DNA of 41,223 nucleotides from Polycladomyces zharkentensis (GTDB lineage: Bacteria; Bacillota; Bacilli; Thermoactinomycetales; JIR-001), in assembly GCF_016938855.1 (NCBI RefSeq), contig NZ_JAFHAP010000021.1, positions 1 through 41,223 of the forward strand. Reading direction: 5' to 3'. A program made the position numbers and the translations under genes. The notes under the pieces are model-generated. The model did not search any database and was not told the DNA's origin. It saw only the letters and a list, made by a program, of their open reading frames with translations. This document shows, in pieces, positions 608 through 6,601 of the stretch. The stretch's first letter is position 1. Every line of letters starts with the position of its first letter.

Positions 608-1108
608 ATGGTAGACAAAGATGAACTTGTTGAACTTCTGAGACAATGGGGAGTATCGCATGCCGAGGAGTGGGCGGAACAAGAGTTGCGTGATGAACAT
701 TTTGCGGTTCTCGCGATGTTTCGATTTCTGCGACCGCTCCAACATATGCTGGATGGTTATCTTTACGGTAGTGAATACTGGGTGCAACAAACCATCGAAC
801 GGAAAGACCCTACAGCTGAAGTGTTGAAGGAAATGATCGATGCCGGAATCGCACCTGAGAAAATTGGATGGTTTGCTTATTGGATTGCCAGAGAAGCTAT
901 CAATGCAGTCCTCTATCGCTTGGACGATCCTGCTGGTGGTGATTATGATTTGCCGAATGAGGGAGAAGGATTACCCAGTTGGAGTTTGCAAGAACGTATC
1001 GAGCATAGAGAGGGGACAAAATGGACCGCCGAATTGACAGGCAGAGTGATCGGAGGCATGCATACTCTTTTCCCTTTTCATAACCCGGAAGACAAGAAGA
1101 TGGAATGA
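608..1108 (+). CDS. Hypothetical soluble protein
   Basis: The protein has about 167 residues, is acidic and tryptophan-rich and probably all-helical. It has no signal peptide or membrane segment and belongs to no family I recognise. Three in-frame ATGs occur at 578, 605 and 608. The strong site AAAGGAG at about 594-600 lies 7 bases before the ATG at 608, so that start is preferred, with 605 as the alternative. The gene stands alone between the small membrane genes and a degraded copy of repeat family A. Its base composition and codon use look like ordinary coding sequence. Confidence 0.65.
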   Translation: MVDKDELVELLRQWGVSHAEEWAEQELRDEHFAVLAMFRFLRPLQHMLDGYLYGSEYWVQQTIERKDPTAEVLKEMIDAGIAPEKIGWFAYWIAREAINAVLYRLDDPAGGDYDLPNEGEGLPSWSLQERIEHREGTKWTAELTGRVIGGMHTLFPFHNPEDKKME

Positions 1109-1133
1109 TTGATGAGAAACAGCACCAAAGGTC

Positions 1134-1255
1134 GAGAATGCTGCGATTCCGGGTGCGCCGTTTTGCCTATCGCTCCTGTTTCGCTGGGAGCGGGTCCGAA
1201 TCCCGTCGAGTGTGGGGTGCTTAAGACGGGAAATCCGAACCCACGGACTTTGTCA
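1134..1255. repeat. Degraded, rearranged copy of dispersed repeat family A
   Basis: The block GATTCCGGGTGCGCCGTTTT followed by ATCGCTCCTGTTTCGC is the reverse complement of the core of the copy at 37454-37642. Immediately after it, GACGGGAAATCCG and ACTTTGTCAACAA match the forward orientation of the same family. This locus is therefore a deleted, partly inverted mosaic, not a clean copy. It fills the gap between the genes at 608-1108 and 1295-1459. Confidence 0.5.
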
Positions 1256-1294
1256 ACAACCTGAAGGTCCAACCTCGGGGCGACTGAAACGACG

Positions 1295-1459
1295 TCATTC
1301 TCCATCCGGATAATGTTTGGCCAAATATTCGTGAATTGCCCGGTCTGCTTGTTCCAATGTGTCAAATGTGGCAAGTTCACCGGAGAATTCCACCTGAATG
1401 CGTCCGTCGGGCAACAGGCGGCGGTCTACGGATACAGGGTCTTGGCGGAACGGTTCCAT
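1295..1459 (-). CDS. Small hypothetical protein (54 aa), last of a minus-strand run
   Basis: On the minus strand an ATG at 1459 opens 54 codons ending in TGA at 1295-1297. The product starts MEPFRQDPVSVDRRLLPDGR and ends in an amphipathic helix rich in Ala, Glu and Leu. AAAAGGAG lies about ten bases upstream of the ATG. The protein is small, soluble and acidic, with no recognised family. It appears to be the last of three tiny genes on this strand (1597-1749, 1484-1600, 1295-1459). A longer overlapping frame in another register (1377-1577, GTG start) has poorer composition and is taken to be a shadow. Confidence 0.5.
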   Translation of the reverse strand: MEPFRQDPVSVDRRLLPDGRIQVEFSGELATFDTLEQADRAIHEYLAKHYPDGE

Positions 1460-1483
1460 AGGGCGTTTGCTCCTTTTTGTGTC

Positions 1484-1600
1484 TTACATGTTTGGGAGGC
1501 GATTTTTCACTTTCCGCTTCCACCGGGACAGAATCATGGTCGCGGTCAGGTTGATCCTCGCCTCCCACTGGTTTCACCAGTCCAGCTCCATGTGCGTCAT
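1484..1600 (-). pseudogene. Small gene with an in-frame TGA at codon 9
   Basis: The ATG at 1600 overlaps the stop of the upstream 50-residue gene as ATGA, the usual sign of translational coupling. The frame reads MTHMELDW, then TGA, then continues for 29 codons rich in Trp, Arg and Lys to a TAA at 1484-1486. The part after the TGA looks like genuine protein (NQWEARINLTATMILSRWKR). The simplest reading is a nonsense change, perhaps of a TGG codon, in a 38-residue gene. A sequencing error or an unrelated downstream frame cannot be excluded. Confidence 0.35.
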
Positions 1601-1749
1601 TCGGTCTGCTCTTCGACTTCTTTGTTCATCGCAGTGACGTCGGCTGCTTCGTTGTTTTGTTCATAAGCCAGTTGAATGAATTGCGCGGCATCCGTTTCCT
1701 GCTCGTCTTCCATCTCTGTGTAGCGGGGATCATTCTTTTTGATGTTCAT
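1597..1749 (-). CDS. Small acidic hypothetical protein (50 aa)
   Basis: On the minus strand the ATG at 1749 follows AAGGAGG by about seven bases, a near-ideal ribosome binding site. The 50-residue product begins MNIKKNDPRYTEMEDEQETD and is very acidic, with no membrane segment and no recognised family. Its stop codon overlaps the start of the next tiny gene. It is the first of a run of three small genes, transcribed away from the membrane-protein gene at 1894. Confidence 0.6.
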   Translation of the reverse strand: MNIKKNDPRYTEMEDEQETDAAQFIQLAYEQNNEAADVTAMNKEVEEQTE

Positions 1750-1893
1750 CTTCGTGGCCTCCTTAATGGGTGATACCCATATTATGGGGAATTGGCCGAA
1801 GGATTATGAGCGATGAAGCGACAAGTGAAAAAAGGATCAATGATCGATGATCACTTTGAGCATTTGAATCTTCGCAATGGGAATCATTGACTG

Positions 1894-2172
1894 ATGGGGG
1901 AGTCATTTTTGGAAACAGGAAATCGCGGCATCCGTATTTTATCTACATTTTTGATGATATTTGGTTTCATGGTAGCCATCCTCCGCGCCGTGCAGATCGG
2001 ACTTTCCATTGGTATGCACAAGGTCTTGTGTATGCCCGTGCAAGGGTGCACGGATACGGAGATCGGTTTTTTTTACGCATTGCTCAGCGTCATGTTGCCC
2101 GGCTTGCTGTTTGCCGGCGGGTTGGGACTTCGACAAGGAAAGCTGGGGTTGGTGGTCGCTGGCCATTTATAA
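1894..2172 (+). pseudogene. N-terminal part of a membrane-protein gene split by the TnpB element
   Basis: The frame gives 92 residues with hydrophobic helices at about 16-39 and 58-80. It may start at ATG 1894 or at TTG 1909, which has GGGGGAG in front of it. Its TAA stop is formed by the first two bases of the inserted element, since the host sequence ends with TTTAT at 2166-2170. Removing 2171-3660 joins this frame, with no gap, to the membrane-protein frame at 3661-3875. That restores a 163-residue protein with about four helices. The family is not recognised. The gene is interrupted, and this part could still be made as a truncated protein. Confidence 0.6.
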
Positions 2173-2238
2173 AATACGAGCGGGAAATTCCAGCCCTTCA
2201 GGGTTGGGATGAAAGCGAGCGTCTGAGGGAGGGGTTTT

Positions 2239-2391
2239 TTACCCCTCTCGCAAGTCCGACATTTTTTGTAAATACTCTTTGACTAACTTCTCAATAATCT
2301 TGCTAGCATCTGTATTTTCTTTAGCAGCTTGTAATTTTAGTTGCTTAATCACTTCTTCATCTAACGAAGTTGTGAATTTTTTGCGTGGCAT
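2239..2391 (-). CDS. Ribbon-helix-helix (CopG/Arc-like) DNA-binding protein
   Basis: The ATG at 2391 on the minus strand is preceded by GGAGGG and opens 50 codons. The product starts MPRKKFTTSLDEEVIKQLKL. A basic beta strand (KKFTTSL) is followed by two helices (DEEVIKQLKLQAAKEN and DASKIIEKLVKEYL). This is the ribbon-helix-helix fold, which dimerises and puts the strand pair into the DNA major groove. The gene diverges from tnpB, and the 66-base space between them holds a TACGTA inverted repeat over the tnpB promoter. It therefore probably represses tnpB and perhaps itself. Its stop falls inside the element's left-end hairpin, so it belongs to the element. Confidence 0.75.
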   Translation of the reverse strand: MPRKKFTTSLDEEVIKQLKLQAAKENTDASKIIEKLVKEYLQKMSDLREG

Positions 2392-2404
2392 TAATTTTCC
2401 CTCC

Positions 2405-2433
2405 TTGTCCTATTACGTATTTACGTATATAAT
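2405..2433 (+). promoter_or_regulatory. tnpB promoter with a TACGTA palindromic operator
   Basis: TTGTCC (2405-2410, four of six consensus bases) and TATAAT (2428-2433, perfect) are 17 bases apart. Two TACGTA hexamers at 2414-2419 and 2422-2427 fill the spacer. Each hexamer is a palindrome and the pair is a symmetric 14-base site. A site of this size and position suits a ribbon-helix-helix dimer or dimer pair blocking RNA polymerase. That the neighbouring gene product is the binder is inferred from adjacency. Confidence 0.65.
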
Positions 2434-2457
2434 ATAGGAAAAGGAGGTGAAAAGCAA

Positions 2458-3588
2458 ATGCACAAAGCGTTTAAATTTCGGATCTATCCAACGAGAGAAC
2501 AAGTTACACTCATTAATAAATCCATTGGTTGTAGTCGTTTTGTATTCAATCACTTTCTAGCCAAATGGAATGAAACATACGAGCAAACAGGAAAAGGACT
2601 AACCTATAGTGCTTGTTCCAAACAATTAACCCAATTAAAGAAGGAACTGGAGTGGTTGAAAGAAGTAGATTCTACTGCACTACAAAACGCATTGAAACAT
2701 CTGGATGACGCATTCAAACGCTTTTTCAAAAGGCAGAATGAACGTCCACGCTTCAAAAGCAGGAAAAATCCTGTTCAATCATACACCAGTCAATGCAATC
2801 ATCCTAAGAAAGGGAAACCCACAATTGAAGTAGTTGGAAACAAAACCAAGCTACCAAAACTAGGATGGGTTAAGTTTGCAAAATCCAGAGAAGTAGAAGG
2901 AAAAATCCTTTCCGCTACGATTCGTCGCAGTCCATCAGGAAAATATTTTGTTTCTATCCTATGTGAAATGAACTACTGCCCATATGTTCCAGTAGATCAA
3001 GAAAAAGCAGTTGGTGTGGATCTTGGCTTGAAAGATTTCGCAATCCTTTCAAACGGTCAAAAAATCAATGCTCCCAAGTACTTCAGAAAGTACGAAAAAC
3101 AATTGGTCAGATGGCAACGAACCATGTCACGTAGGCAATATGGCGGTAGCAATTGGAACAAAGCACGTTTAAAGGTTGCTAAGATCCATGAAAAGATCGT
3201 AAATGCAAGGCATGACTTTCTTCATAAAATGTCAACCAAACTGATTCACGAAAACCAAGTGATCTGTTTGGAAGACTTGCAAGTGAAAAACATGGTGAAA
3301 AATCATAAGCTGGCAAAATCAATTACGGATGTGTCATGGTCTGAGTTTGTCGCGATGCTGAAATATAAGGCTGAGTGGTACGGTAGAACCATAGTTAAAG
3401 TCGGTAAGTCCTTTCCATCCAGCCAGCTATGTTCCAACTGTGGGCGTCGCCATAAAGAGGTAAAGAACCTCAATCTAAGAGAATGGACATGCCCAGAGTG
3501 CCAAACTCACCATGACCGAGACATCAACGCATCCATCAATATCCTGCAAGAAGGTATAAGACTTTTCACCGCAGGGCTTGCGGGTTGA
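2458..3588 (+). CDS. tnpB: TnpB, RNA-guided RuvC-type nuclease of an IS200/IS605-type element
   Basis: The 376-residue protein appears full length. It has the N-terminal [10 protein letters not shown] segment, a RuvC-I Asp at D188 ([10 protein letters not shown]), a RuvC-II Glu at E272 (ICLEDLQ), a four-cysteine zinc ribbon (C325, C328, C345, C348), and a RuvC-III Asp at D355 (DRDINAS). All three catalytic acids are present, so the nuclease should be active. TnpB proteins cut DNA next to a short target-adjacent motif using an RNA from the element's right end. Here the motif should be TTTAT, the sequence flanking the left end. AAGGAGG precedes the ATG by nine bases. The base composition is more AT-rich than the neighbouring genes, a sign of transfer. 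Confidence 0.93.
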
Positions 3589-3660
3589 GCTTGGTCAATA
3601 TCCTGTCAGTAGATGGGAGTTCCCAAGAATCCCACGGATTCAGCCGTGTGGAGTGTCAAC
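3540..3660 (+). ncRNA. Probable omega RNA (TnpB guide RNA) scaffold
   Basis: In the TnpB family the guide RNA comes from the 3' end of tnpB and the right end of the element, and its guide lies just outside the right end. Here the right end folds as CCCACGG...CCGTGTGG, directly before the terminal GTGTCAAC. A guide would be read from about 3661 onward, inside the broken membrane-protein gene. It would match the empty site behind TTTAT. The 5' limit given is a guess. Confidence 0.5.
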
Positions 3661-3875
3661 ACGTGTTCGACCCCATTGTAGCATTTGTCACCAGAGGTGC
3701 TTCAGTTAATATCTTGTTGCTCATTTACGCTTTTCTCTGCCTGCTTCTGCTCATTTATCTCTATCGGGAAAAAGTATTGGCATACGCCTCCATTCAGGGA
3801 AATAAGAGAAGAAATTTGTTGATCCTGTTTTGGACCTCGGTTATCATCTTGATGTTATTTGAATTAAGCGTATGA
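3661..3875 (+). pseudogene. C-terminal part of the membrane-protein gene split by the TnpB element
   Basis: The frame is open through the element's right end, but the native part starts at 3661. It encodes about 71 residues with two strongly hydrophobic helices (SVNILLLIYAFLCLLLLIY and LLILFWTSVIILMLFEL) separated by a basic loop. It joins in frame to the part ending at 2170 when the element is removed (TTA TAC GTG). It lacks its own good start site. The next gene, the pseudouridine synthase, begins 74 bases on. Confidence 0.55.
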
Positions 3876-3949
3876 ATGAAAGCCAAAATCCAATGGGAAA
3901 CATGATCCAACTGCTGTGGAGCGGGCAGAGGAGGAAGTGAGGTGAAAAC

Positions 3950-4873
3950 ATGGAATCACACACCGTGATGACACATCGTGTCGATGAGTCGGAGGACGGC
4001 AAGATGGTCCGCCAGGTCCTGCGCAACCGGTTCCGGTTTTCCCGCCGCCAGTTTCGCCGATTGAAGGTGACCGATGGTGTTCGGGTCAACGGTTCATTCG
4101 CCTATTTGACCTCCCGCGTGAAGACGGGGGATGTCATCACTGTCACCCTGACGGACGAAGAACCGGTGCACATTCCTCCTCAACCCGTCCCCTTACACAT
4201 CATGTATGAAGATGAAGATCTGCTGGTGTTGGACAAACAACCGGGTGTCGTTGTGCATCCGACCAAAGATTACCGGGATTGGACATTGGCCAACGGTTTG
4301 GTGCATCATTGGCGGGAAAGGGGAGAGACTCATCAGGTACGGCCGGTTACAAGGCTGGATAAAGAGACGTCGGGCTTGATCGTGTTTGCCAAGCATGCAC
4401 ACGCCCATGCTTTTTTATCCGGGCAGATGGCGAACAAGCGGTATAAACGCGAATATTTGGCCATCGTGCACGGCCGTGTGTTGCGGACATCCGGTACGAT
4501 CGATGCCCCGATCGGTCGGGACCCCGCCCACACCAGCCGCCGCATCGTAACCCCGGACGGAGCGGAGGCGGTCACCCACTACCGGGTGGAGGCGGCTTTT
4601 TCCAAGGCATCGTTGGTACGTCTCTCACTGGAAACGGGGCGAACCCATCAAATTCGCGTCCATTTGGCGCATCTCGGTCATCCGATCATCGGCGACACCT
4701 TATATGGAAATGAGGAAGATGCGGCCATGTGGGGAATGGAGCGGCAAGCCCTGCATGCCGCGCGATTGACGCTCATCCATCCGCGCGACAAATCCTCGCG
4801 CACCTGGGAATCCCCCATTCCTGCGGATATGAAACGGCTGTTGGACCGGGTGAAACAGGCGGAAAACAAGTGA
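3950..4873 (+). CDS. RluA-family 23S rRNA/tRNA pseudouridine synthase
   Basis: The 307-residue protein converts specific uridines in RNA to pseudouridine. An N-terminal S4-like RNA-binding region (about residues 20-70, containing RFSRRQFRRLKV) is followed by the catalytic domain. The motif RLDKETSG contains the catalytic Asp at about D137, and GRTHQIRVHL and GDTLYG are the other family signatures. Length and domain order match Bacillus RluD-like enzymes (YjbO/YhcT/YlyB type); which paralogue is not clear, so no symbol is given. AGGTG a few bases upstream supports the ATG. It looks like a stand-alone gene, with the lipase start 72 bases after its stop. Confidence 0.9.
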   Translation: MESHTVMTHRVDESEDGKMVRQVLRNRFRFSRRQFRRLKVTDGVRVNGSFAYLTSRVKTGDVITVTLTDEEPVHIPPQPVPLHIMYEDEDLLVLDKQPGVVVHPTKDYRDWTLANGLVHHWRERGETHQVRPVTRLDKETSGLIVFAKHAHAHAFLSGQMANKRYKREYLAIVHGRVLRTSGTIDAPIGRDPAHTSRRIVTPDGAEAVTHYRVEAAFSKASLVRLSLETGRTHQIRVHLAHLGHPIIGDTLYGNEEDAAMWGMERQALHAARLTLIHPRDKSSRTWESPIPADMKRLLDRVKQAENK

Positions 4874-4945
4874 AAAACAGGCAGCAGGAATTTGGCTCCT
4901 TTCGAGAGAATGGCACACTCATTCCACGGAAAGGAGCGATACCCA

Positions 4946-6601
4946 GTGAGACACAGAAAATGGTTCCTCTTTGCCGCCTTGTTGATGTGCATCCTCTTGG
5001 TTCCCGGCACACCGGCAGTCGGAAAGGCGAGCGTTCCGCCTCCCGTCAAGATGGGACAGGTGAACGGGGGCGATGTATCCACCGCCACTGATCCGCCGGG
5101 AACATGGTATTTGGGAGCGACACCGCCCAATGCCGATTCCGGCAAGCCACCAATCGTATTTGTTCAGGGGTTGAACGGCACGGCCGAAAGTTGGTGGGAA
5201 GACACGGTATACCATGGCCGCAACGATATGTATGAAGACGCTTACCATGCAGGATACCGAACAGCGTTCCTGCAGTTGTGGGACGCTTCGGGTAACGGCG
5301 GTGCGAGCATGTGGGACAACGGTCAGTTGCTGGCCGAGCTGTTGCGCCAGATTTCACAATACTTCGGGCAACCGGTCAATGTGGTGGCGCACAGCAAAGG
5401 CGGGATCGATGCACAGACTGCGTTGGTGTATTACGGTGCCTCTCCCTATGTGGGCAAGGTTATCACGTTGGGGTCCCCGCATCACGGCTCGCATCTGGCC
5501 GACCTGGCTTACAGCTGGTACGCGGGGTGGCTGGCTGACTTGTTGGGGATCAAAAGTGACGGGGTATACGTTCTGCAGACGGGCTACATGGACCAATTCC
5601 GCTCTGATACGGACGGACGTCCCGAGGTGAGCCGCAATCCGTTCTACACCGCTGCGGGTACCAACTGGGGACCGTTTCCCTCCGCATTGTGGACGGGCGG
5701 AGCGTATCTGTCGGTGCATGGCAGCAATGACGGGCTGGTCAATGTATGGAGTACCCAATTGCCCTACGCGTCCCATATTTTTACGGAAAATTTCGATCAC
5801 GATTTGATCCGCACCGGCTCTGCTTCATTCAACCGGATTGAACCGTTGTTGCGAACGGGTAAAACGGCGATGACGGCAGAACCGTCGGCGCATGCGTCCG
5901 CAACCAGGGATGCCGTGCAAACGGCCGCCGCCCAACAAGTGGTGCGCGGACAGTCCCTCCCGGCAGGGCAAACCGTGACGGAGACGGTACCGGTCGAATC
6001 CGGCAATGGAGAAGTGGTGTTTCACGTGATGACCGGACATGCAGGAGCACAGGTGACGCTGGAGTCCCCGACAGGTCAGATTTACAACAGTCAAAGCCCG
6101 CAATATTTCACCGGTGTCGATCAGGGTATTTTCCGCAACGCGAATGTAAGCGCTTTCCGAATCGCGCAACCCGCCGTCGGCAACTGGAAAGTAAGCATTC
6201 AAAACAGCGTGGACGACGCGTATCTGATGGCGGTCACCTATACTTCCGCATCCGGTTTGCAATATCAGATCGACCCGGTCAAGGGCAAGAACGGGGTCTT
6301 TGCGGTCAAAGTGACGCCCGCCGCGGCTTCGGCCCGCTGGGACCGTTGGAACGTCCGCGTCCGTGTCGTGCCGCCTTCGGCTCAAACGGCAGCGGCCATG
6401 AATCAGCAAAGGATGGAGATGCGCCTGGTTCCTTCACGACAGGCCGGTGGATTTGTCGGCACTTTGCCTGCCTTCACCCAAACAGGCGTGTATAATGTCA
6501 CCGTCGATGTAAGCGGTTGGACCCCGGACGGCCACCCGTTCGCCCGGACCTGGATTGAATCGGTGTACGTTCCGGGAAAAACGTCCTCGATGAAACGGTG
6601 A
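4946..6601 (+). CDS. Secreted triacylglycerol lipase-like alpha/beta hydrolase
   Basis: The 551-residue protein should hydrolyse ester bonds of lipids outside the cell. A signal peptide (MRHRKWFLFAALLMCILLV... ending near GKA) precedes the hydrolase domain. The oxyanion-region strand IVFVQGLNG is followed by the nucleophile elbow AHSKGG (S150) and the family segment TLGSPHHGSHLAD. The acid is probably D262 (SNDGLV) and the base H285 (FDHDLIR). After about residue 300 comes a beta-rich C-terminal region of about 250 residues of unknown role. The GTG at 4946 is chosen because AAAGGAG lies nine bases before it and the signal peptide begins there. An upstream in-frame ATG at 4892 would add 18 polar residues. 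Confidence 0.85.
   Translation: MRHRKWFLFAALLMCILLVPGTPAVGKASVPPPVKMGQVNGGDVSTATDPPGTWYLGATPPNADSGKPPIVFVQGLNGTAESWWEDTVYHGRNDMYEDAYHAGYRTAFLQLWDASGNGGASMWDNGQLLAELLRQISQYFGQPVNVVAHSKGGIDAQTALVYYGASPYVGKVITLGSPHHGSHLADLAYSWYAGWLADLLGIKSDGVYVLQTGYMDQFRSDTDGRPEVSRNPFYTAAGTNWGPFPSALWTGGAYLSVHGSNDGLVNVWSTQLPYASHIFTENFDHDLIRTGSASFNRIEPLLRTGKTAMTAEPSAHASATRDAVQTAAAQQVVRGQSLPAGQTVTETVPVESGNGEVVFHVMTGHAGAQVTLESPTGQIYNSQSPQYFTGVDQGIFRNANVSAFRIAQPAVGNWKVSIQNSVDDAYLMAVTYTSASGLQYQIDPVKGKNGVFAVKVTPAAASARWDRWNVRVRVVPPSAQTAAAMNQQRMEMRLVPSRQAGGFVGTLPAFTQTGVYNVTVDVSGWTPDGHPFARTWIESVYVPGKTSSMKR

What the first reader, a model, noticed from the sequence alone, without database searches (positions are those of the whole stretch)
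2239..2460. TnpB cassette carries its own ribbon-helix-helix gene and operator
A 50-residue ribbon-helix-helix gene lies inside the TnpB element, divergent from tnpB. The space between them has a TACGTA-TT-TACGTA site filling the spacer of a good promoter (TTGTCC, 17 bases, TATAAT). This suggests a dedicated repressor that keeps the RNA-guided nuclease at low level, a layout I do not know as a described TnpB accessory. The remnant of the same gene in element 3 (CTCTCGCAAGT) hints that it is a stable part of this element family.
Basis: partly seen in the sequence, partly recalled or inferred. Interest (0 to 1): 0.62.

Follow-up and report, generated by a model that had tools for sequence, protein, structure and literature searches.

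The report
Swappable repressor guarding TnpB nuclease gene
A tiny DNA-binding protein gene sits back to back with a transposon's RNA-guided nuclease gene, with its likely binding site inside the nuclease promoter; related regulator-plus-site units recur beside other TnpB genes and phage nucleases, as if they were an interchangeable safety switch for selfish DNA-cutting enzymes.

Summary
Confirmed: a 50-aa RHH gene (2391-2239, -) is divergent from an apparently intact tnpB (2458-3588, +), and TACGTA-TT-TACGTA fills the 17-bp spacer of the tnpB promoter. The repressor reading is supported by comparison, not experiment. (1) The RHH family, up to 90% identical, occurs at 17 viral-contig places (about 10 distinct cassettes): 16 are divergent from an HNH or GIY-YIG nuclease (three of these calls by eye), all 17 have TACGT half-sites, and 11 have two in the nuclease-promoter spacer. 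(2) RHH type and site type travel together while the nuclease changes: L224's TnpB is 79% identical to the window's, but its RHH (82%) and site are those of another element, C2. (3) RHH-TnpB pairs occur with TnpBs as little as ~25% identical. Wrong: the element-3 'remnant' is left-end DNA also found in RHH-free elements; RHH is an optional, exchangeable module. Closest published parallel: Arc-type genes reverse to cas12k in CAST transposons. Listings from nine library searches showed no RHH-TnpB report.

The parts
2171..2260 (+). left end (LE) of the IS200/IS605-type element, approximate limits: hairpin CCAGCCCTTCAGGGTTGG and the CTCTCGCAAGTCCGAC segment; overlaps the 3' end of rhh
   Evidence: at least 37 other LE-like places in own genome; LE without RHH in Marininema L030/L032; G001 copy aligns over 2177-3660
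2239..2391 (-). rhh: 50-aa ribbon-helix-helix (Arc/CopG-like) protein
   Evidence: Pfam RHH_1 and DUF6364 above cut-off, phrog_3180 Arc-like repressor, AF2 helices 12-25 and 29-49, mean pLDDT 76, purifying selection
2405..2433 (+). tnpB promoter TTGTCC-N17-TATAAT
   Evidence: same layout in G001 and S. soli and in nuclease loci
2414..2427 (.). putative RHH operator TACGTA-TT-TACGTA inside the promoter spacer
2458..3588 (+). tnpB, RNA-guided endonuclease, apparently intact
   Evidence: NF038281 606 bits; open frame and motifs
3589..3660 (+). right end with hairpin CCCACGGATTCAGCCGTGTGG; expected guide-RNA (omega RNA) scaffold region
   Evidence: sequence; boundary from alignment with G001; the omega-RNA role is general knowledge, not tested

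Best explanation
The RHH protein is the dedicated transcriptional repressor of the divergent tnpB gene and probably of its own gene. As a dimer it binds the TACGTA-TT-TACGTA dyad that fills the spacer of the tnpB promoter and shuts out RNA polymerase, keeping the nuclease (and the guide RNA, if it is cut from the tnpB transcript) low once the element is established. Gene, promoter and operator form an exchangeable control unit, acquired or swapped several times by TnpB elements and also used by phage HNH, GIY-YIG and other nucleases. A likely advantage, purely inferred, is timing: on entering a cell without repressor the nuclease is made in a burst until RHH builds up. Shown here: gene, site, promoter geometry, selection, co-occurrence, co-switching. 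Inferred: binding, repression, autoregulation, timing.
For: Selection on the RHH protein. Same layout and identical TACGTATTTACGTATATAAT in G001 between different flanks, RHH 96% and TnpB 91% identical. S. soli (RHH 73%, TnpB 77%) has TACGTGTTTACGTA in the same spacer. L238 (TnpB 51%, RHH 61%) has TTGTCA-TATACGCCTATGCGTAG-TATAAT. At 17 viral places (about 10 distinct cassettes; several contigs repeat one) RHH is divergent from an HNH or GIY-YIG nuclease in 16 (L184, L187 and L189 by eye), and 11 of the 17 have two ACGT in the spacer of a TTG-N16-18-TATAAT promoter. Scan of all loci then held: 12 distinct promoter-like strings have two ACGT in the spacer; 11 are RHH-linked promoters (3 tnpB, 8 phage or plasmid partner genes). 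Half-sites sort by RHH type: TACGT/ACGTA in 17 of 18 type-I regions and 0 of 18 others; GTCGT/ACGAC in 5 of 5 type-II and 0 of 31 others (rows are not all independent). L224 has a window-like TnpB (79%) but a type-II RHH and type-II site. Streptococcus phage loci L215/L216: RHH plus intergenic DNA 205 of 218 nt identical, nucleases 37% identical. Published parallel: Arc_1 and Arc_2 genes reverse to cas12k (PMC9938897, passages).
Against: No binding or expression data. A 6-bp-arm palindrome arises in 13.8% of shuffles of this intergenic region, and in 9-60% for the eight other regions tried. The gene is absent from most of the TnpB loci surveyed, including close relatives, and broken in S. alba, G022 and G002 copies. 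C17 and C20 keep intact RHH although tnpB is deleted or truncated, so RHH may matter without its neighbour's product, or these copies are young. The operator-in-spacer geometry is not universal: it is missing at L194-L197 and L208 (HNH partners), L204 and, by the two-ACGT rule, L238; type-II dyads overlap the -35 and follow the -10 instead. RHH relatives L218 and L219 lie beside a glycosyltransferase-like gene (by eye) with no TACGT half-site, and L204 beside a gene that is not a recognised nuclease. Type-IV regions contain none of the type-I, II, III or A/N/T motifs; no motif of their own was sought. Repression is not proven over activation. No promoter for rhh itself was found by the consensus scan.
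Confidence: 0.83

Rival explanations
1. RHH is a self-regulating passenger captured from a phage; it regulates only itself, and overlap with the tnpB promoter is incidental.
For: The closest RHH relatives found outside the bacterial elements are in viral contigs; most TnpB loci surveyed do without it; intact in C17 and C20 where tnpB is broken.
Against: The site lies between -35 and -10 of the tnpB promoter in window, G001 and S. soli and of the nuclease promoter at 11 of 17 viral places, and tnpB-linked RHHs of several types recur.
Confidence: 0.1
2. RHH is a transposition factor that binds the left end or TnpA, like an accessory architectural protein.
For: rhh overlaps the left end; in some IS605 elements tnpA is divergent from tnpB, as rhh is here (recalled); in L270 a tnpA-like fragment directly follows rhh on the same strand.
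Against: The type-specific sites sit at promoters; 34 of the 37 other left-end places listed lack rhh. Phage relatives were not tested for transposon ends.
Confidence: 0.04
3. RHH is an antitoxin-like partner that neutralises TnpB directly, the pair acting as a toxin-antitoxin-like addiction unit.
For: Some type-II RHHs weakly match antitoxin RHH models, below cut-off.
Against: The protein is only 50 aa, with little beyond the RHH fold; the partner nuclease families have unrelated folds (recalled); the DNA site, not the partner protein, tracks RHH type.
Confidence: 0.03

Closest known systems
Arc_1 / Arc_2 regulators of type V-K CAST transposons (PMC9938897)
   Same: Small RHH genes (53-72 aa) in reverse orientation upstream of a Cas12-family effector gene (cas12k); authors infer several independent acquisitions; the L250-type RHH matches Pfam RHH_5, the label given to Arc_2
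   Different: Partner is Cas12k in a Tn7-like transposon, not a TnpB with catalytic motifs in an IS605-type element; no sequence comparison with Arc_1/Arc_2 was made here
CvkR (MerR-type) repressor of cas12k (PMC9938897)
   Same: Divergent regulator whose operator lies mainly in the -35/-10 spacer of the effector promoter
   Different: MerR fold and a 21-nt spacer; unrelated protein
phrog_3180 Arc-like repressors of phages (e.g. Anoxybacillus phage A403)
   Same: Same protein family, TACGT-rich divergent region, nuclease-like partner
   Different: Lies in phage genomes; partner is not TnpB; in A403-type loci the site is not in the spacer geometry
SvtR (56B), AvtR, E73 viral RHH proteins
   Same: RHH fold; weak profile matches in the PDB (E 0.0007-0.05)
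   Different: Archaeal viruses; no nuclease partner known to me (recalled)
TldR (nuclease-dead TnpB homologues)
   Same: Regulation connected with TnpB elements (recalled; only a reference-list entry seen)
   Different: There TnpB itself became the regulator; here TnpB keeps its catalytic motifs

Membership tests
Ribbon-helix-helix (Arc/CopG) DNA-binding proteins | Sequence match to RHH models; strand plus two helices | tested here: met
   RHH_1 21.3 bits vs 20.5, DUF6364 29.6 vs 27.3; phrog_3180; AF2 helices 12-25 and 29-49 (no strand assigned, a dimer was not modelled)
Ribbon-helix-helix (Arc/CopG) DNA-binding proteins | Dimer binds an operator | not testable with these tools
   Comparative support only
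IS200/IS605-type element with TnpB | TnpB with RuvC and zinc-finger motifs | tested here: met
IS200/IS605-type element with TnpB | Subterminal hairpins at both ends, no target duplication | tested here: inconclusive
   Hairpin-like LE and RE seen in sequence; empty site not tested
IS200/IS605-type element with TnpB | Y1 transposase in the element | tested here: not met
   No match of a relative's TnpA in the window; three partial Y1 matches in the genome; so a tnpB-only derivative, presumably moved in trans
CAST Arc_1/Arc_2 regulators | Encoded upstream of and reverse to cas12k in a Tn7-like transposon | tested here: not met
   Partner is IS200_TnpB
Type II toxin-antitoxin antitoxin | Partner is a toxin bound by the RHH protein | not testable with these tools
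   Partner gene is TnpB; protein-protein binding cannot be tested
RHH-nuclease cassette of phages (my own description, not an established family) | Same RHH family, TACGT operator in the spacer, divergent nuclease | tested here: met
   Window meets all three; 11 of 17 viral places do

The most novel reading that the evidence does not exclude
A portable 'nuclease-control cassette' (RHH gene, divergent promoter and type-specific operator at that promoter) is shared and traded among otherwise unrelated selfish nucleases: TnpB, HNH, GIY-YIG and a zinc-finger/homing-nuclease type. Residues 5, 7 and 9 of the RHH strand (K/T/S, E/H/T, N/N/T, A/N/T) predict the half-site (TACGT, GTCGT, CATAG, GTTGT), and the cassette acts as an entry timer for homing.
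Probability: 0.55. Interest if true: 0.8.

Novelty: new variant of a known kind. Interest (0 to 1): 0.7.

Why it matters
How transposon-encoded RNA-guided nucleases are kept from harming their hosts is, as far as I know, little explored. An element-borne repressor would give TnpB its own switch, link its control to that of phage nucleases and of Cas12k transposons, and offer ready-made orthogonal repressor-operator pairs. It makes a direct prediction (derepression on entry into naive cells) that can be tested in laboratory strains.

Tried and rejected
Rejected: 'CTCTCGCAAGT = RHH remnant'. Rejected: a significance claim from the palindrome alone. Rejected: RHH as a fixed part of the family (5 of 97 loci). 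Rfam on 1000-5000 gave only two matches far below gathering score. Plasmid blastn covered at most 73% of the query, at 60-80% identity. The class survey of 398 genomes with profile A2 gave 10 genomes; the divergent ORFs of the new loci outside the order (L177-L179) are not TnpB-like; the broader phrog_3180 profile did find TnpB pairs. L243 scored as a type-II site, but the match is a hairpin at its left end. dN/dS against S. soli is saturated at synonymous sites, so counts are given, not a ratio.

Rows dropped and caps: one search kept the best 80 of 202 relatives; of 111 tnpB loci (80, 31) 14 were left out because the 5' end or upstream DNA was missing; RHH genes there were found with two profiles and by reading a list of 51 small ORFs, so other RHH types may be missed. 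One search scored 40 of 89 candidates. In one search, 35 matches were listed and 30 became loci; one (L262) is the window, so 29 were examined. In one search, 7 of 17 phage records were opened, 2 of 3 plasmids. Partner proteins of 10 loci were run through Pfam, and 9 of them through PHROGs; the rest were judged by similarity or by eye. RHH types were assigned by me. Literature: one search listed 15 of 249 papers and 15 of 30, so the listings are partial there.

Full report
What is there. The window lies in a 3.3-Mb, 22-contig genome; the public relatives of its tnpB with the highest identity are in Paludifilum, Marininema, Shimazuella, Thermoflavimicrobium and Paenactinomyces (Thermoactinomycetaceae, recalled), with Clostridia and cyanobacteria lower in the list. 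The element runs from a hairpin-bearing left end near 2171 to a right end near 3660; the G001 copy aligns over 2177-3660. It holds two genes: rhh (2391-2239, -) and tnpB (2458-3588, +). rhh encodes 50 residues and matches RHH models; an AlphaFold model from 11 rows gives helices 12-25 and 29-49, mean pLDDT 76. tnpB keeps GVDLG, LEDL and DRDINA motifs. Between them TTGTCC-N17-TATAAT faces tnpB, and TACGTA-TT-TACGTA fills the spacer.

What was wrong in the finding. CTCTCGCAAGT is left-end DNA. One search lists 37 other left-end-like places in the own genome (40 rows less the window and two tnpB pieces; 40 of 89 candidates scored), and whole-genome profile searches find RHH at three of them, C2, C17 and C20. 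Marininema elements with a 74%-identical TnpB have the same left end about 50 bp from tnpB and no RHH. Element 3 (15198-14950) is a short element of the kind seen at many of these places (read by eye), with no RHH signal (E 0.39 at best). Because rhh ends inside the left end, different RHH proteins share the tail SDLREG.

Is rhh a maintained gene? Window versus S. soli: about 23 of 27.7 synonymous and 18 of 116 nonsynonymous sites differ; C2 versus C17: 8 and 2 changes. Broken copies also exist: S. alba, G022, G002.

TnpB partners. RHH-TnpB pairs with both frames open: window, G001, S. soli, C2, L223/L224 (one element in two contigs), L256, L238, L250, L261, L265, L270, L286: 12 elements. The TnpBs range from 91% down to about 25% identity among themselves. 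By my grouping the RHH proteins are type I (window; RKKFTTSLD), type II (C2; ELHTTVD), type III (L250; RHH_5), type IV (RHH_3: L260, L261, L265) and an NINTTLD type (L270, L286). In the tnpB-first survey 5 of 97 loci had an intact divergent RHH gene (L031, L223, L224, L238, L250; the last scored only E about 0.5 with my profiles, was noticed by eye and matches RHH_5) and L046 a broken one. In the RHH-first survey of 398 genomes of the window's phylum (Bacillota, inferred) with phrog_3180, 23 genomes matched. Of 29 loci examined besides the window, 6 have tnpB sequence beside RHH by tblastn (L261, L265, L270, L286 open; L263 and L284 broken). Four more show a TnpB N-terminus by eye only: L260, L283 and L285 near contig ends, and L288, where tblastn finds no tnpB.

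Phage partners. Two viral-contig scans gave 17 distinct places with type-I RHH, about 10 distinct cassettes because several contigs repeat one. The divergent neighbour is an HNH or related endonuclease in 7 (L183, L193-L197, L208; for L193 by PHROG, not Pfam), GIY-YIG in 8 (L184-L188, L190-L192; L184/L187 by eye), GIY-YIG by eye at a contig edge in 1 (L189), and not a recognised nuclease in 1 (L204) (representatives were scanned). Of 7 phage records opened out of 17, four Streptococcus phages carry a CapR/zinc-finger protein; those of P7632 and CHPC1033 (L215, L216) were scanned and match PHROG homing/HNH endonuclease families, the other two were read by eye. Phage A403 carries the L196-type gene, 80% identical to the HNH protein L194. 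Leuconostoc phage L5 and wine phage CRBO14223 carry a glycosyltransferase-like gene instead, by eye. Of 2 plasmids opened out of 3, L220's partner matches the same nuclease PHROG; L221's was read by eye.

The site. Across all loci held at that point (2.33 Mb counting both strands, with redundancy) 1,730 strings, repeats included, fit TTGNNN-N16-18-TAYNNT; 12 distinct ones have two ACGT in the spacer, and 11 are RHH-linked: tnpB of window, G001 and S. soli, and eight partner promoters. The collection is enriched for RHH loci, so this shows localisation, not a genome-wide rate. Place by place, 11 of 17 viral places and all 6 Streptococcus-phage and plasmid loci examined have this geometry; L194-L197, L204 and L208 have half-sites but not the geometry, and L218/L219 have no half-site. 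L238 has TACGC..GCGTA in the spacer of TTGTCA-TATAAT. Half-sites sort by RHH type: TACGT/ACGTA in 17 of 18 type-I regions and 0 of 18 others; GTCGT/ACGAC in 5 of 5 type-II and 0 of 31 others; CATAG/CTATG in 4 of 4 N/N/T and 7 of 32 others (single matches); GTTGT/ACAAC in 3 of 3 A/N/T and 4 of 33 others; TAGTGGTACAC in 2 of 2 type-III and 0 of 34 others (rows such as C2/C17/C20 or L215/L216 are close relatives). Type-II dyads overlap the -35 and follow the -10 rather than filling the spacer. That strand positions like 5, 7 and 9 contact DNA is recalled for CopG/Arc-type proteins, so the residue-site agreement is a testable code, not a result.

Exchange. L224 TnpB is 79% identical to the window's and 42% to C2's; its RHH is 32% identical to the window's and 82% to C2's, and its site is ATGTCGTTGACGACAT as in C2. 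L256 carries two perfect copies of that site. In Streptococcus phages RHH plus intergenic DNA is 205 of 218 nt identical while the nucleases are 37% identical. So regulator and operator can stay together while the nuclease is exchanged. The window's RHH is closer to the viral L183 RHH (90% over 40 residues) than to C2's (42%), so separate acquisitions are likely; no tree was built.

Mechanism. Most likely the RHH dimer covers the promoter and blocks RNA polymerase. In several phage loci a further single site lies near the promoter facing rhh (read by eye), which would give tight nuclease repression and milder self-control; in the window the two are compressed into 66 bp. Binding, repression and timing are not shown.

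Literature. Nine searches of the held open-access library (listings seen, two of them partial; one search failed) showed no report of RHH with TnpB, or of an RHH-homing-endonuclease cassette. Passages and the Discussion of PMC9938897 describe Arc_1 (22) and Arc_2 (11) genes upstream of and reverse to cas12k, and CvkR binding in the cas12k promoter spacer. Passages of PMC8987985, PMC3119063 and PMC13092281 do not describe it. Subscription journals, preprints and ISfinder were not searchable, so earlier notice of such passenger genes cannot be excluded.

Noticed in passing
window 15198-14950 (-) and many other places in G000: Short left-end-to-right-end elements (about 250-300 bp), MITE/PATE-like by eye, many with a right-end segment like that of the C17 element; own Y1 transposase only as three partial matches.
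   Followed up: partly
L113 (C17 near 6280) and L112 (C20 near 3269): Elements with intact rhh and type-II sites, but tnpB internally deleted (C17) or truncated (C20).
   Followed up: partly
L270:1305-1638: A Y1-transposase-like fragment (DHVHLF) directly downstream of rhh on the same strand, suggesting an rhh-tnpA operon divergent from tnpB in some elements.
   Followed up: no
L214:1866-2411 (phage A403 gp21): Annotated 'terminase small subunit', but it lies at the place of the HNH-type protein divergent from the Arc-like repressor (HNH domain shown for the 80%-identical L194 protein).
   Followed up: partly
L163/L176, L167, L170; L112:8862-9674: Another RHH group divergent from a predicted membrane protein (by eye), with CATAG-type sites in L176; the own genome has a similar membrane protein gene.
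   Followed up: no
L029 and L064 upstream of tnpB: Close relatives of the window TnpB have tnpA co-directional and directly upstream of tnpB (two overlapping matches in L064, so perhaps broken), with no RHH gene found.
   Followed up: partly
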